The notes under the pieces: model-generated
Told to the model about the DNA's origin: nothing
Database searches by the model: none
The model's input: the letters and a program-made list of their open reading frames with translations, nothing else
Assembly (NCBI RefSeq): GCF_003019675.1
Contig: NZ_CP028105.1
Coordinates: forward strand, 1,628,282 to 1,692,281
Length of the DNA: 64,000 nucleotides
From: Fusobacterium ulcerans
Lineage (GTDB): Bacteria; Fusobacteriota; Fusobacteriia; Fusobacteriales; Fusobacteriaceae
Direction of reading: 5' to 3'
Part shown: positions 8,616 to 15,960 of the stretch, piece by piece
Layout: each line of letters opens with the position of its first letter
Position numbering within the stretch: position 1 is the stretch's first letter
Program-made: the position numbers and the translations under genes

Positions 8616-8644
8616 TTGACATTTAAATATATTATTGGTATAAT
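8616..8644 (+). promoter_or_regulatory. Consensus sigma-70 promoter of the gntR-symporter-racemase operon
   Basis: TTGACA (8616-8621), a 17-bp spacer and TATAAT (8639-8644) match the consensus exactly. The transcription start would fall inside the palindrome at 8644-8665. The remaining 8357-8615 is AT-rich and holds nothing I can name. Confidence 0.8.
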
Positions 8645-8665
8645 TCAAATGTCTAGACATTTGAA
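8644..8665. promoter_or_regulatory. Perfect 22-bp palindromic operator, HutC/GntR type
   Basis: The half-site TTCAAATGTCT is followed by its exact reverse complement, and the core GTCTAGAC fits the GT-N-TA-N-AC pattern known for HutC-subfamily GntR regulators. It overlaps the -10 box and start point of the first promoter, so autorepression by the GntR protein encoded 100 bp downstream is the simplest reading. Confidence 0.75.
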
Positions 8666-8726: not shown

Positions 8727-8764
8727 GTAGAAGAGTTTTAAAATTTGGATAGGGTGTGGTTTGT

Positions 8765-9559
8765 ATGAAAAAATTAAAAAGTGATAGTCCAATCCCTCTT
8801 TATTATCAGCTCAGAGAAATCATAAGAGATAAAATAATGAATGAAGATTGGGGATATGGAACAGAGATACCTTCAGAATTGAAGCTTTGTGATGAGTTTA
8901 ATTTATGCAGAGCCACAGTAAAACAGGCAATGGATGGTCTTGTAAATGAGGGACTTATTGTAAGGAAAAAAGGAAAAGGATCTTTTGTAGTCTATCAAAA
9001 GATTACAGAAAATTTTCTGCTAGAACCAGCTTTTAGCAAAAAAAGTGGAGAAGCAGGATTGAATGATTACTCAACAGTGATTTTTTCAGATTTTACAGAA
9101 ACAGACAGAAGAATGCAAAAAGTATTGGAGCTAGAAGAGAATGGAGAAGTGTATCAAATAGAGAGGCTTCATTATATAGATGGAAAACCAGTTCTTTTAG
9201 ATACACACTATATCAATCCTAAATGGGCAGGAAATATTTCAAAGGAAGATATTAGAGAAATAGCTGTATATAAATATATTGAAAATACCTATGAAAAAAG
9301 TTTTACTAATTATAAAATAGGAGTACAGGCAATAATGCTTGATCAATATGAAAAAGAGCAGCTTGATTTTCCAGAAATTCCCACAGGGATGGTAGTAGAA
9401 TGTCTGTCATTTATAGGAAAAGAGCCTGTGGTATTCAACAGGAGAACTTACAGAGGAGATAGATGTGATCTTTGTTTAGAATTCATAGCTGTTAATCAAA
9501 AAATGGAAGTTGTCAATTCAGAGATTTCTATTGAAGAGAGAAATGGAAAACGTCATTAA
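8765..9559 (+). CDS. GntR-family regulator, HutC subfamily (UTRA effector domain)
   Basis: The 264-residue protein begins with the GntR winged helix (SPIPLYYQLREIIRDKI, then LCDEFNLCRATVKQAMDGL and GLIVRKKGKGSFV, about residues 6-77). A UTRA-type ligand domain follows (about 95-245), including VYQIERLHYIDGKPVLLDTHYI. It is expected to bind the palindrome at 8644-8665 as a dimer and to be released by a metabolite. A GTG at 8756 is also possible, but it overlaps the AGGGTG ribosome-binding site, so the ATG at 8765 is chosen. The two genes downstream suggest that an amino acid or dicarboxylate, or a product of it, is the signal. Confidence 0.9.
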   Translation: MKKLKSDSPIPLYYQLREIIRDKIMNEDWGYGTEIPSELKLCDEFNLCRATVKQAMDGLVNEGLIVRKKGKGSFVVYQKITENFLLEPAFSKKSGEAGLNDYSTVIFSDFTETDRRMQKVLELEENGEVYQIERLHYIDGKPVLLDTHYINPKWAGNISKEDIREIAVYKYIENTYEKSFTNYKIGVQAIMLDQYEKEQLDFPEIPTGMVVECLSFIGKEPVVFNRRTYRGDRCDLCLEFIAVNQKMEVVNSEISIEERNGKRH

Positions 9560-10868: not shown

Positions 10869-11576
10869 ATGAAAGAAAAAGTTGTGGGAATATTAGGTGG
10901 AATGGGACCAGAAGCTACTATAGATCTTTTTGCCAAAATAGTAGAAGAAACACATGCAAAATGTGATGAAGATCACTTGAGAATAATAGTGGACAATAAT
11001 CCAAAAATGCCAAGCAGACAGGATGCAATCATGAAAGGGACAGAAAGTCCAGTTGCAGCTATGGTTGCTACAGCAGAAAATTTAAAAAAAGCGGGGGCTG
11101 ACTTTATAATAATTGGGGCAAATACAGCACATTATTTTTATGACGAAGTTGCCAGTCAAGTAGATATACCATTTTTACATATAATAGATGAAGCAGTAAA
11201 AGAGATGATGCGTCAGGTGCCAGGAATAAAAAAAGTGGGGGTAATGGCAACTAATGCAGCTGTGAAGATTAAATTATATGATAAATGCTGTGCAAAGTTT
11301 GGAATAGAAGTAATAGCTGCAAAAGAGGAAGTACAGAATAAAGTACATGATACTATATTCGACTTTAAATACAATGGGGTTACAGAAAAAAATGTAAAAG
11401 ATGCCACAGATTGTGCTGAATATTTTATAGAAAATGGAGCAGAGGCATTAATAATGGGATGCACAGAAATCCCAATTATATTAAAAGGAAAAAGTTTTAC
11501 AGTGCCTCTTATAGATCCTAATGATATTATAGGAAAAGTGGCAGTAGCTTACGCAAAAAATAAATATGAATTATAA
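10869..11576 (+). CDS. Aspartate/glutamate racemase-family protein with one catalytic Cys replaced
   Basis: The 235-residue protein has the Asp/Glu racemase fold: VGILGGMGPEATIDLF at the N-terminus, a NPKMPSRQDAI substrate loop, ANTAHYFYDE at 84-93, and MGCTEIPIIL at about 196-205. These racemases normally use two cysteines, the first in a CNTAH motif and the second in GCTE. Here Cys198 is present, but the first position is Ala84. This could alter the reaction to a one-base or epimerase-like activity, or leave the protein catalytically weak. It is the last gene of the GntR-symporter operon. An exact substrate is not assigned. Confidence 0.82.
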   Translation: MKEKVVGILGGMGPEATIDLFAKIVEETHAKCDEDHLRIIVDNNPKMPSRQDAIMKGTESPVAAMVATAENLKKAGADFIIIGANTAHYFYDEVASQVDIPFLHIIDEAVKEMMRQVPGIKKVGVMATNAAVKIKLYDKCCAKFGIEVIAAKEEVQNKVHDTIFDFKYNGVTEKNVKDATDCAEYFIENGAEALIMGCTEIPIILKGKSFTVPLIDPNDIIGKVAVAYAKNKYEL

Positions 11577-11618: not shown

Positions 11619-13175
11619 TTATTCAAGGCCAAGTTCTTTGAGTTTTCGATAAAAAGTTCTTCTGCTTAGTTTAAGAAGTTCAATAGCTTTTGATCTGTTA
11701 TTGTTACATTTATTTAAAGCATCTATAAAAATGTCATGTTCATATTGTGTTACAGCATCTTTTAGAGAGGTATAATTTTTTATGAAATGATTATTAGTAG
11801 TTAAATTTTGAATATTTTCTTTTTCTTGTATAGATGCAGGAATATCTGTTAAAAGTATTGTGGAAGAATTGCAAAGGATAACTGCATATTCTATTGCATT
11901 TTTTAATTCCCTTATATTACCAGGCCATTTATAATTATAAAAATAATTATAAACATCAGAAGAGAAAATAAGAGATTTCCCATATTTTTTATTAAATTTT
12001 GAAAGGAAAAAATTAGATAATAAAATTATGTCATGTTTTCTATTTCTTAAAGGTGGAATATCAAGAGTTATGACATTTAAACGATAATAAAGATCTCTTC
12101 TAAATAATTTTTTTTCAATAAGCTCTTCAAGATTTTGGTTAGTTGCTGCAATTATTCTCACATTAATAGCAATATTTTTAGAACTTCCTATTTTTTCAAT
12201 TTCTCCTTCTTGAAGTACTCTTAAAAGTTTTGCCTGCATAGATAGAGGGGTGTCGCCTATTTCATCTAAGAAAATAGTCCCTCCTTCTGCTAATTGGAAT
12301 TTTCCAAGTTTTCCACCTTTTTTAGCTCCAGTAAAGCTGCCGTCTTCATATCCAAATAATTCGCTTTCAATAAGGTTTTCAGGTATAGCAGCACAATTTA
12401 CAGTGATAAAAGGTTTATTATTTCTAAGACTATTTTTATAAATGAAATTTGTTAAAATTTCCTTACCAGAACCATTTTCTCCTCTTATGAGAACTACTGC
12501 ATCAGTTTTTGCAACAGATAATGCTTTTGATATCAAATTTGAAAATTCAGGAGTATCACCTATAAAGTCAGAATTTTTAAGTTCTTGCTGTTCTTTTATC
12601 TGATTGCTAAATCCTTCTGCAACATCAGATATTCTTTTAACTTCATCATTTAATTGTGTGATTTCAGTAATATCTTTAAATATAGAAAAAGCTCCTTCAA
12701 AACTACCATTATTAAACAGAGGGAAAAGACGGATAGATACATATTTTTTTAAAGACTTAATATAAGTTTTTTCCTTTGAAACTGCTTTTTTTGTTTTTAA
12801 AACTTTTATTAATTCTGTATCTTGTTCAATGTTTTGGATATATTTTCCAATGATTTTTCTTTGAGGAATATTAAGGATTTGACTATATCTTGAGTTGGTA
12901 TAAAAAATTCTTCCAGTGGTGTCTATAATAATAACTGCTTCTTCAATATTGTCTAAAATATTAAAAAATTTTATATTTTTAAATTTTTCTATTAAGAAAA
13001 TAAGAAATTCATTTTTAATTTTTCCAACAATATCATTGTTTTGATTTATAATATAAGTATATTCATCCTTTAGATTAATATCTTCAATTGATAATAAAGA
13101 AACCAGAGTTTCTTCATTGAGATATTTTCCTAAGGATTTTTCAAAATGGGGAGACATGATATCAGATAATTTCAT
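11619..13175 (-). CDS. Sigma-54-dependent transcriptional activator with PAS domain
   Basis: The 518-residue protein has a PAS sensor at about 70-190 (NIEEAVIIIDTTGRIFYTN). A AAA+ domain follows with Walker A GENGSGKE at 232-239, the sigma-54 contact loop GSFTGA at 279-284, Walker B IFLDEIGD at 301-308 and the arginine-finger region RRDLYYRLNV near 359-368. The Fis-type helix-turn-helix lies at about 487-518. The contact loop has Ser in place of the usual Ala (GAFTGA). The ATG at 13175 follows AAGGAGG, although the frame is open further upstream. The gene is divergent from the HMG-CoA reductase operon, which has a -24/-12 promoter, so it is the likely activator of that operon. The PAS ligand is unknown. 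Confidence 0.93.
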   Translation of the reverse strand: MKLSDIMSPHFEKSLGKYLNEETLVSLLSIEDINLKDEYTYIINQNNDIVGKIKNEFLIFLIEKFKNIKFFNILDNIEEAVIIIDTTGRIFYTNSRYSQILNIPQRKIIGKYIQNIEQDTELIKVLKTKKAVSKEKTYIKSLKKYVSIRLFPLFNNGSFEGAFSIFKDITEITQLNDEVKRISDVAEGFSNQIKEQQELKNSDFIGDTPEFSNLISKALSVAKTDAVVLIRGENGSGKEILTNFIYKNSLRNNKPFITVNCAAIPENLIESELFGYEDGSFTGAKKGGKLGKFQLAEGGTIFLDEIGDTPLSMQAKLLRVLQEGEIEKIGSSKNIAINVRIIAATNQNLEELIEKKLFRRDLYYRLNVITLDIPPLRNRKHDIILLSNFFLSKFNKKYGKSLIFSSDVYNYFYNYKWPGNIRELKNAIEYAVILCNSSTILLTDIPASIQEKENIQNLTTNNHFIKNYTSLKDAVTQYEHDIFIDALNKCNNNRSKAIELLKLSRRTFYRKLKELGLE

Positions 13176-13219
13176 AAGATGAACCTCCTTAATAAGAATA
13201 AAATGTAGCGAAAATGATA

Positions 13220-13231
13220 TAGTATATACTA
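13220..13231. promoter_or_regulatory. Candidate upstream activating sequence for the sigma-54 activator
   Basis: TAGTATATACTA is a perfect 12-bp palindrome centred about 98 bp upstream of the -24 element. This is the distance expected for an enhancer-binding protein site. It lies in the intergenic space between the divergent activator and its presumed target operon. Confidence 0.45.
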
Positions 13232-13322
13232 AATGATACCATATTTTTTTATAAAGTGCCATTAAGTATACAATAAAATAAAGAAATATATTAAAAGCTG
13301 AAAAAAAGCCTATTTATAGCAA

Positions 13323-13338
13323 TGGCATTAGTTTTGCT
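13323..13338 (+). promoter_or_regulatory. Sigma-54 (-24/-12) promoter
   Basis: TGGCATTAGTTTTGCT matches the sigma-54 consensus TGGCAC-N5-TTGC, with GG and GC at the exact required 12-nt phase. It sits about 50 bp upstream of the HMG-CoA reductase start. No comparable sigma-70 promoter is obvious in the same interval. Confidence 0.78.
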
Positions 13339-13384
13339 TATATAAAAGGCAGAGGCAATAAAAAATAATTAAGGGAGTGAGGAT

Positions 13385-14647
13385 ATGAAACAAAGTAGTT
13401 ATTCAGGATTTTTTAAACTATCACCAGAGGAAAGATTAAGAGAAGTGACAGAATTTTGTAATTTAACATCAGAAGAGCAAGAAATATTAAAAGATCCAAA
13501 TTGCTTGGATATGGATAAGGCTGATCATATGATAGAAAATGTAATTGGACGTTTTGCTCTTCCATTGGGAGTGGGACTTAATTTCAAGATAAATGAAAAA
13601 GATTATCTTATACCTATGGTAAGTGAAGAACCATCAGTAGTTGCAGCAGCAAGTAATGCAGCAAAGATAATAAGAGAAAGCGGAGGTTTTACAACAAGCA
13701 ACACAGGTTCTGTTATGATAGCTCAAATTCAGATTACAGATGTAGCAGATCCTCATTTTGCAAAAATTGTCATAGAAGAAAATAAAGAAAAAATAAAAAC
13801 TTTATGTAATGAGAAGGATCCTATTCTTGTAAAGTTTGGTGGAGGAATGGAAGATTTAGAAGTTCGTATTATAGAGAGCATAATAGGAAAAATGGTAATT
13901 GTTCATCTTAAAGTTAATACTTTAGATGCTATGGGAGCTAATGCAGTAAATACCATGGCAGAGGCTGTGTCTCCTTTATTGGAAGAGTTGACAGGAGGAA
14001 GAGCTTTTCTAAGAATATTATCTAATCTGGCCATTCACCGTTTGGCAAGAGCGAGAGTAAAGATAAAAAAAGAGACTATTGGAGAAGATATTGTAGATAA
14101 AATAATAACAGCATATGCTTTTGCAGAAGCAGATCCATTTAGAGCAGTAACTCATAATAAAGGAATAATGAATGGAATAATTCCAGTAGTTTTAGCAACT
14201 GGAAATGATACAAGAGCTATTGAGTCAGGAGCACATGCATATGCTTCTATAACAGGAAGATATACATCTCTGACAACTTGGGAAAAGGATAAAAATGGTG
14301 ATTTAGTAGGAACAATAGAACTTCCTATGGCTGTTGGATTAGTAGGGGGAGCAACAAAAATACATCCTACTGCAAGAGTAGCAGTAAAAATGCTAGGAGT
14401 AAAGTCAGCAGCTGAACTTGGAGAAATAATAGCCAGTGTAGGGCTAGCAAATAACTTTGCTGCAATAAAGGCATTAGCTACTGAAGGAATTCAAAGAGGA
14501 CATATGTCACTTCATGCAAGAAACTTGGCAACAGTGGCAGGAGCTAAGGGAGAGGCTTTAGAATCAATAGTAGTCCAAATGATAAAAGAAAAAAATGTTC
14601 GCTTAGAATATGCACAGGAATTGTTGAAAAAATTTAATTCAAAATAA
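13385..14647 (+). CDS. mvaA: Hydroxymethylglutaryl-CoA reductase, class II (degradative type)
   Basis: The 420-residue protein carries class II HMG-CoA reductase landmarks: ENVIGRFALPLGVG (51-64), SEEPSVVAAAS with the catalytic Glu at about 82, THNKGIMNG with Lys259, TGNDTRAIESGAHAYA with Asp275, and RGHMSLHARNLA with His373. By family knowledge class II enzymes interconvert mevalonate, CoA and NAD(P)+ with HMG-CoA. In Pseudomonas mevalonii the homologue works in the mevalonate-degrading direction. The neighbouring permease and HMG-CoA-lyase-like gene, plus sigma-54 control, favour degradation here. Mevalonate synthesis for isoprenoids is unlikely, since no other mevalonate-pathway gene is present and a DXS-like gene lies elsewhere in the window. 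All four catalytic residues are intact. Confidence 0.93.
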   Translation: MKQSSYSGFFKLSPEERLREVTEFCNLTSEEQEILKDPNCLDMDKADHMIENVIGRFALPLGVGLNFKINEKDYLIPMVSEEPSVVAAASNAAKIIRESGGFTTSNTGSVMIAQIQITDVADPHFAKIVIEENKEKIKTLCNEKDPILVKFGGGMEDLEVRIIESIIGKMVIVHLKVNTLDAMGANAVNTMAEAVSPLLEELTGGRAFLRILSNLAIHRLARARVKIKKETIGEDIVDKIITAYAFAEADPFRAVTHNKGIMNGIIPVVLATGNDTRAIESGAHAYASITGRYTSLTTWEKDKNGDLVGTIELPMAVGLVGGATKIHPTARVAVKMLGVKSAAELGEIIASVGLANNFAAIKALATEGIQRGHMSLHARNLATVAGAKGEALESIVVQMIKEKNVRLEYAQELLKKFNSK

Positions 14648-14670: not shown

Positions 14671-15960
14671 ATGGTAGCAATTATAGTTTCATTAATTCTT
14701 TTGATTTTTCTGTCTTTTAAGAAAATAAATATAGTAGTAGTTGGAATATTGGCAGCAGCAGTGATGGCATTATTGTCAGGGCAACCAGTACTTACTGCCA
14801 TCAAAGATTCATATATGATGGGGGCAGCTGGGTTTGTTCAAAACAACTTTTTAATATTTTTCTTCAGTGTGCTTTTTGGGAAAGTGATGGAAGAAACAGG
14901 ATCAGCAGCTTCTATAGCAAAATTTCTAGCAGAAAAATTAGGAGAGAAATATGCAATTTTAGGAGTGATATTTGCTGGAGCAGTTTTAGTATATGGAGGA
15001 GTGACTACTCTTGTGGTAGTATTTAGTCTGTATCCAATAGCACTATCATTGTTTAAAAAAGCGAATCTTCCAAGATATTTGCTTCCAGGTGCAATAGCAG
15101 GAGGATGCTTCACATTTGCATGTGCAAATTTTCCAGGGACACCTAATTTAGTAAATGTTATTCCTATACAATATCTTGGAACTACAACAATGGCGGCTCC
15201 AGTAGTTGGAATAGCAGCAGGACTTGTAGTTATGTTGCTGGTATGTGTATTTTTTCTAAGAGAAGCAAAAAAGGCTAAACTTAGAGGAGATATTTTTATA
15301 GATGATGAAGACACAATAAAGAGTCTTGCAAAAGTTAATTCTATTGAGAAACTTCCTAGTCCTTTTGTATCAGTATTGCCAATAATTCTGATACTGGTAG
15401 TTTTAAATATTTTAAAACAGGATGTAATACTTGCAATGTTATGTGGAATAATATTATGTGTAATACTGTTCTTTAAAAATCTTGGAAATATATTGGATAT
15501 ATTTAATTATTCTTCAAAAAATGCAGCTATAGCTATTATAAATACAGCAGTAGTAGTAGGATTTGGTGCTGTTGTAAAAAATTCATCAGGATTTCAGCAA
15601 TTATTTGATTTTAGTACAAATTTAAAGGGATCACCTCTTGTTTCTTTTGGAATAATGACAACTGTACTGGCAGGTGCATGTGGCTCAGGCTCAGGAGGAT
15701 TGGGAATAGCTTTAGAAGCTATGGCTTCTAGGTATCTGGCATTAGGATTGAGTCCTGAAATACTTCATAGAGTAGGATCAGCAGCATCTGTAGGATTGGA
15801 TAGCCTTCCTCATAATGGAGCTGTGATAACACTTTTGACAATAAGCGGAACAACTCACAAGGAAGCATATAAATATATATTTTTTCCTACTGTAGTATGT
15901 ACTTTGGCTGGACTAGCAGTAAGTATTTTATTAGGAACAATTTTATATCCTGTTTTATAA
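14671..15960 (+). CDS. GntP-like permease, candidate mevalonate importer
   Basis: The 429-residue protein is almost entirely hydrophobic, with about 12 membrane segments. It has the GntP-family signatures of an early SGQPVLTAI/ SYMMGAAGF region, NFPGTPNLVNVIP at about 151-163, and GACGSGSGGLGIALE and HNGAVITLL in the C-terminal half. GntP and related ion-transporter-superfamily carriers import gluconate and other hydroxy acids with protons. Its place between HMG-CoA reductase and HMG-CoA-lyase-like genes, with 23 and 34 bp gaps, makes mevalonate or another branched hydroxy acid the probable cargo. That is inference; no transport specificity can be read from sequence. Confidence 0.82.
   Translation: MVAIIVSLILLIFLSFKKINIVVVGILAAAVMALLSGQPVLTAIKDSYMMGAAGFVQNNFLIFFFSVLFGKVMEETGSAASIAKFLAEKLGEKYAILGVIFAGAVLVYGGVTTLVVVFSLYPIALSLFKKANLPRYLLPGAIAGGCFTFACANFPGTPNLVNVIPIQYLGTTTMAAPVVGIAAGLVVMLLVCVFFLREAKKAKLRGDIFIDDEDTIKSLAKVNSIEKLPSPFVSVLPIILILVVLNILKQDVILAMLCGIILCVILFFKNLGNILDIFNYSSKNAAIAIINTAVVVGFGAVVKNSSGFQQLFDFSTNLKGSPLVSFGIMTTVLAGACGSGSGGLGIALEAMASRYLALGLSPEILHRVGSAASVGLDSLPHNGAVITLLTISGTTHKEAYKYIFFPTVVCTLAGLAVSILLGTILYPVL

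What the first reader, a model, noticed from the sequence alone, without database searches (positions are those of the whole stretch)
13220..13338. Correctly phased -24/-12 promoter with a palindromic upstream site
TGGC and TTGC elements are in exact 12-nt phase, and a perfect 12-bp palindrome sits about 100 bp upstream, between the activator and its target. This is the standard geometry for DNA looping by an enhancer-binding protein and makes a testable activator-target pair in a phylum where sigma-54 regulation is little discussed.
Basis: partly seen in the sequence, partly recalled or inferred. Interest (0 to 1): 0.62.

Follow-up and report, generated by a model that had tools for sequence, protein, structure and literature searches.

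The report
Sigma-54 promoter controlling mevalonate breakdown genes

Summary
The -24/-12 promoter is real. TGGCATTAGTTTTGCT (13323-13338) is the only exact consensus match in 64 kb. The genome has a full-length rpoN, 17 enhancer-binding protein (EBP) genes, and 14 strict sites genome-wide (0 in a reversed control), 13 of them within 5 kb of an EBP gene. The promoter lies between a divergent PAS-AAA+-Fis EBP and a degradative HMG-CoA reductase / permease / HMG-CoA-lyase-like operon, i.e. mevalonate catabolism. The same EBP family and a -24/-12 promoter occur with HMG-CoA reductase operons in six other genomes (Clostridia and the window's own family). None of 77 reductase loci without this EBP has such a promoter.

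The palindrome TAGTATATACTA exists, but 15-23% of simulated sequences of this composition contain one as good, and it does not match the EBP family's sites. Those are TGCCA-N4-TGGCA and a variant TGNCANNANGTAWACA. The variant occurs in the window only at 13257-13272 (expected 0.04 per 64 kb). In 1.4 Mb of fetched loci it occurs only upstream of sigma-54 promoters of these genes.

So the promoter and activator-target reading is supported, and the palindrome as binding site is not. It is a new member of a known kind of regulation; I found no report of sigma-54 control of mevalonate catabolism in the library searched.

The parts
11619..13172 (-). Sigma-54-dependent activator (EBP): N-terminal region resembling part of PrdR, PAS sensor, AAA+ domain with GSFTGA loop, Fis-type HTH. 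Start codon at about 13172 preceded by AAGGAGG, not the longer ORF start at 13262
   Evidence: Pfam Sigma54_activat 231 bits, AAA_lid_14, HTH_8, PAS; PrdR-like but below that model's cut-off; alignment with six orthologues sets the start
13257..13272 (+). Best candidate activator-binding site (UAS): TGCCATTAAGTATACA, starting 66 bp upstream of the -24 element
   Evidence: Only match in 64 kb, with at most 1 mismatch, to a consensus made without the window; expected 0.04. TGNCANNANGTAWACA found nowhere else in 198 loci except upstream of sigma-54 promoters of this gene set
13220..13231 (.).
   Evidence: Present; chance level and no match to the family motif; may be the edge of a degenerate inverted second copy at 13223-13238
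13323..13328 (+). -24 element (TGGCAT)
   Evidence: genome-wide family of such sites next to EBP genes
13334..13338 (+). -12 element (TTGCT), GC at 13336-13337; predicted transcription start about 13348-13349
   Evidence: start position inferred from the -12 rule
13385..14647 (+). HMG-CoA reductase, class II degradative type (mvaA)
   Evidence: TIGR00532 472.7 bits, cut-off 260; nearest solved relatives include the class II enzyme 1qax
14671..15960 (+). GntP/CitMHS-superfamily permease, probable mevalonate importer (substrate inferred from context)
   Evidence: Pfam GntP_permease 43 bits, CitMHS 34 bits
15995..16978 (+). HMG-CoA lyase-like enzyme
   Evidence: PF00682; NCBIfam HMG-CoA lyase subfamily 200 bits, below its cut-off of 246; solved HMG-CoA lyases as best relatives

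Best explanation
13323-13338 is a sigma-54 promoter for a three-gene operon (HMG-CoA reductase, permease, HMG-CoA-lyase-like) that imports mevalonate and oxidises it through HMG-CoA. The divergent EBP senses a pathway-related signal through its PAS domain, binds a site at 13257-13272 (perhaps with a weak inverted copy at 13223-13238), and uses ATP hydrolysis to open the RpoN-RNA polymerase complex. The promoter, RpoN, EBP architecture and conserved linkage are shown by sequence. The binding site is supported by comparison. Activation, looping, the ligand and the direction of the pathway are inferred.
For: Full-length RpoN with the RpoN box ARRTIAKYREEL. 14 strict -24/-12 sites in the genome versus 0 in the reversed control; 17 EBPs; 11 of 14 sites within 2 kb of an EBP gene (0.3 expected), 13 of 14 within 5 kb. 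Orthologous EBPs (46-51% identity) in six other genomes, with -24/-12 sites: C. bovifaecis L003, Lachnospiraceae MAG L004/L193, L194, L195 (exact), L170 and L171 (each departing from the strict consensus). 0 of 77 reductase loci without the EBP have a site within 300 bp. Independent motif discovery gives TGCCA-N4-TGGCA in all six (124 bits versus 64-73 in shuffles). Variant site matched only at 13257 in the window.
Against: The window lacks a good 14-bp TGCCA-N4-TGGCA site (best score 0.9; known sites 12.7-22). The variant site was first seen by comparing the window with L194, so its definition is partly post hoc; the unbiased 16-mer comparison of window and L194 is not significant. At -66 the site is nearer the promoter than the 100-250 bp usual in Clostridiales. 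In L170 and L171 the TGCCA-N4-TGGCA palindromes are followed by T runs and could be terminators of the EBP gene. The lyase scores below the HMG-CoA lyase cut-off.
Confidence: 0.8

Rival explanations
1. Sigma-54 promoter and EBP as above, but the EBP binds the palindrome at 13220-13231, possibly together with 13257-13272 as a large imperfect dyad.
For: Position 92-103 bp upstream of the -24 fits the -90 to -146 range of most sites in relatives. AGTATATAC recurs 220 bp upstream of the C. bovifaecis promoter; GTATATAC there has about 0.6% chance. 13220-13244 and 13251-13275 are 72% complementary.
Against: Such a palindrome arises in 15-23% of simulations; score -25.6 against the family motif; dyad of this quality in 10 of 200 simulations; absent from the other relatives.
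Confidence: 0.2
2. The palindrome belongs to the activator's own sigma-70-type promoter (minus-strand TATACT) or is simply AT-rich chance.
For: It lies about 48 bp upstream of the EBP start codon; minus-strand TATACT within it would give a short leader; palindrome frequency is chance level.
Against: The promoter scan finds no -35 box for it, only two other minus-strand candidates at chance level (2 found, 2.1 expected).
Confidence: 0.5
3. The -24/-12 match is a coincidence and the operon is read from a sigma-70-type promoter.
For: A single exact match in 64 kb would appear in 11% of shuffles.
Against: It sits in the 212-bp gap between an EBP and its conserved partner operon; sites recur in all six relatives; no plus-strand sigma-70-type site was found in 13100-13450.
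Confidence: 0.04

Closest known systems
Sigma-54 regulons of Clostridiales with one-component PAS-type EBPs (Nie et al. 2019, PMC6615313), PrdR the nearest named model
   Same: PAS-AAA+-Fis layout, GSFTGA variant accepted, EBP gene next to a single target operon, TTGGCAT-N5-TTGCT promoter, several upstream sites
   Different: Main text names no mevalonate or HMG-CoA regulon; PrdR score 471 is below its cut-off of 795; site TGCCA-N4-(TGGCA or GTAWACA) rather than TGT-N10-12-ACA; host outside Clostridiales by inference
mvaAB mevalonate-catabolic operon of Pseudomonas mevalonii
   Same: Degradative class II HMG-CoA reductase with an HMG-CoA lyase-family gene; the HMG-CoA reductase entry 1qax (P. 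mevalonii enzyme, organism from memory) is among the nearest solved structures
   Different: Here the operon contains a permease and a divergent EBP; no EBP relative was found beside proteobacterial reductase genes. P. mevalonii operon layout and regulation by MvaT are from memory, not tested

Membership tests
Sigma-54 (-24/-12) promoter | GG and GC dinucleotides in TGGCAY-N5-TTGCW register | tested here: met
   Exact match at 13323-13338
Sigma-54 (-24/-12) promoter | RpoN encoded in the genome | tested here: met
   412-aa ORF with RpoN box, PF04552 151 bits
Sigma-54 (-24/-12) promoter | Transcription start about 12 nt downstream of the -12 GC, RpoN-dependent | not testable with these tools
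   Needs 5' end mapping in wild type and rpoN mutant
Bacterial enhancer-binding protein | AAA+ domain with GAFTGA-type loop and DNA-binding HTH | tested here: met
   PF00158, AAA_lid_14, HTH_8; GSFTGA in the alignment, a variant stated to be functional in PMC6615313
Bacterial enhancer-binding protein | Upstream binding site conserved among orthologues | tested here: inconclusive
   Clear TGCCA-N4-TGGCA in six relatives; the window has only the variant form, shared with two other genomes
[quoted passage not shown]
   13257-13272 reads TGC-N10-ACA, one base off; the palindrome TAGTATATACTA holds neither TGT nor ACA
PrdR (NF041552) | Score above the curated cut-off of 795 bits | tested here: not met
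   471 bits
Degradative (class II) HMG-CoA reductase | TIGR00532 above cut-off | tested here: met
   472.7 versus 259.95 bits
HMG-CoA lyase | HMG-CoA lyase model above its cut-off | tested here: not met
   NF004283 200 versus 246 bits; called HMG-CoA-lyase-like only

The most novel reading that the evidence does not exclude
A sigma-54/EBP regulon dedicated to HMG-CoA and mevalonate catabolism, shared by Clostridia and fusobacteria, whose activator recognises two differently built sites: a symmetric TGCCA-N4-TGGCA and an asymmetric TGCCA-N4-GTAWACA.
Probability: 0.4. Interest if true: 0.5.

Novelty: new member of a known kind. Interest (0 to 1): 0.4.

Why it matters
It gives a concrete, testable sigma-54 activator-target pair in a genome inferred to be fusobacterial, with a genome-wide list of about 15 promoters next to EBP genes, and extends sigma-54 control to mevalonate catabolism, for which I found no report in the library searched. 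It also corrects which sequence to test in a binding assay.

Tried and rejected
Palindrome as the conserved enhancer: tested and not supported. Score of the window with the six-relative motif: no site better than chance. Unbiased 16-mer comparison of the window with L194 upstream: not significant against simulations; the same comparison with L003 gave a lower match. Large dyad 13220-13275: borderline, 10 of 200 simulations. Footprinting in the window's own genus was impossible: none of the 11 other genus members searched has the reductase. Literature searches for sigma-54 with mevalonate or Fusobacterium gave nothing directly relevant besides PMC6615313, PMC12316311 and PMC3162934. Structure prediction was not used: domain assignment was already clear and it would not identify the ligand.

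Full report
Observation. The sequence is as described. TGGC lies at 13323-13326 and TTGC at 13334-13337, with the -12 GC at 13336-13337. TGGCAY-N5-TTGCW matches exactly once in 64 kb, where shuffles give 0.11. TAGTATATACTA at 13220-13231 is a perfect palindrome, but 37 perfect palindromes of at least 12 bp occur in the window, and 15% (150 bp) to 23% (212 bp) of simulated sequences with the region's dinucleotide make-up contain one.

Genome context. The window lies in a complete 3.54-Mb genome. It encodes a full-length RpoN ending in an RpoN box and 17 proteins with a full sigma-54 interaction domain (an 18th, partial match is weak). The strict pattern TGGCAYR-N4-TTGCW occurs 14 times, against none for the reversed pattern. 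Eleven of the 14 lie within 2 kb of an EBP gene, with 0.3 expected, and 13 within 5 kb. The window's site differs from that strict form only by T at the seventh position, and it lies 760 bp from the EBP's AAA+ domain. RpoN is found above the family cut-off in 48 of 98 genomes of the phylum, in all 12 of the genus and in almost none of one family, f4.

Gene content. Upstream and divergent is an EBP (11619-13172, minus) with PAS, AAA+ and Fis-type HTH domains and a GSFTGA loop. Downstream are a degradative HMG-CoA reductase (472.7 bits against a cut-off of 260), a GntP/CitMHS-type permease and an HMG-CoA-lyase-like protein, separated by 23 and 34 bp. By established biochemistry a degradative reductase makes HMG-CoA from mevalonate and a lyase cleaves it to acetoacetate and acetyl-CoA, so the operon reads as mevalonate catabolism. 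The lyase falls below its model's cut-off and is named with caution.

Conservation of the pair. Orthologues of this EBP, alike over their whole length including the N-terminal region, were found in six other genomes: Clostridium bovifaecis (L003), a Lachnospiraceae MAG (L004/L193), two unnamed relatives of C. bovifaecis (L194, L195) and two genomes of the window's own family (L170, L171). In each, a -24/-12 site stands before the operon holding HMG-CoA reductase: TGGCATGAGGATTGCT (L003), TGGCATCATAATTGCT (L004), TGGCATGGTGTTTGCT (L194), TGGCATGGAAATTGCT (L195), TGGTATAAAAATTGCT (L170), TGGAACGAAATTTGCT (L171). In four of them an AtuA-like gene comes first (named from the start of its sequence, not searched in a family library). 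In the Lachnospiraceae MAG the EBP lies on another contig, beside genes of the kinds that follow the reductase in L170. As a control, none of 77 reductase loci without this EBP has TGGC-N7-TTGC within 300 bp upstream.

Binding site. Motif discovery on the six relatives, with the window left out, returned TGCCA-N4-TGGCA or a near match in every one (total 124 bits, shuffles 64-73), mostly 90-146 bp upstream of the -24; L004 and L195 have three copies each at nearly the same places. The window has no such site. A second form, TGNCANNANGTAWACA, occurs twice in L194, once upstream of the second sigma-54 promoter of C. bovifaecis (before its HMG-CoA lyase), and at 13257-13272 in the window. It occurs nowhere else in 198 loci totalling 1.4 Mb (the other loci listed overlap these places). 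The consensus of the three copies outside the window finds 13257-13272 as its only window match with at most one mismatch, 0.04 expected in 64 kb. The form was recognised by comparing the window with L194, so the test is not fully independent.

Mechanism. Most likely the EBP, controlled through its PAS domain by a signal tied to mevalonate or HMG-CoA, binds 13257-13272 and drives open-complex formation by RpoN-polymerase at 13323-13338, with transcription from about 13348. Shown by sequence: promoter, RpoN, EBP layout, conserved linkage. Supported by comparison: the binding site. Inferred: ligand, looping, direction of the pathway.

Comparison with the known. This is an ordinary sigma-54/EBP pair of the kind catalogued in Clostridiales (PMC6615313), whose main text does not mention mevalonate or HMG. 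A broader survey does not either (PMC12316311). Francke et al. report that F. nucleatum lacks sigma-54 (PMC3162934). The claim of novelty is limited to the library searched; supplementary tables were not readable.

Verdict. The promoter and the activator-target pairing hold; the palindrome as enhancer does not. A solid but modest finding.

Noticed in passing
8644-8665: 22-bp perfect palindrome TTCAAATGTCTAGACATTTGAA about 90 bp upstream of a GntR/UTRA regulator (8756-9559), probably its operator.
   Followed up: no
10869-11576: Racemase scoring above the cut-off of the cysteate racemase CuyB model (240 versus 190 bits), next to a GntR regulator and a dicarboxylate-type symporter on the same strand.
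   Followed up: no
L003:2678-2846: C. bovifaecis has a second sigma-54 promoter (2831) before its HMG-CoA lyase gene, with the variant site at 2678-2693, suggesting one activator for both operons.
   Followed up: partly
L170, L171, L194, L195: In four relatives the EBP-controlled operon begins with an AtuA-like (acyclic terpene utilisation) gene before HMG-CoA reductase; three of them carry what look like TctAB-type transporters, so the pathway may start from something other than free mevalonate.
   Followed up: partly
13385-14647: HMG-CoA reductase is absent from the 11 other genomes of the genus searched, and its nearest named relatives are clostridial (79% and 72%), suggesting gain by horizontal transfer.
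   Followed up: partly
G000:C1 1061755, 1481714, 1796753, 2186641: Four of the genome's 17 EBP genes have no -24/-12 match within 5 kb.
   Followed up: no
L003:5691: AGTATATAC, shared with the window's palindrome, lies 220 bp upstream of the C. bovifaecis promoter (GTATATAC about 0.6% by chance); unexplained.
   Followed up: partly
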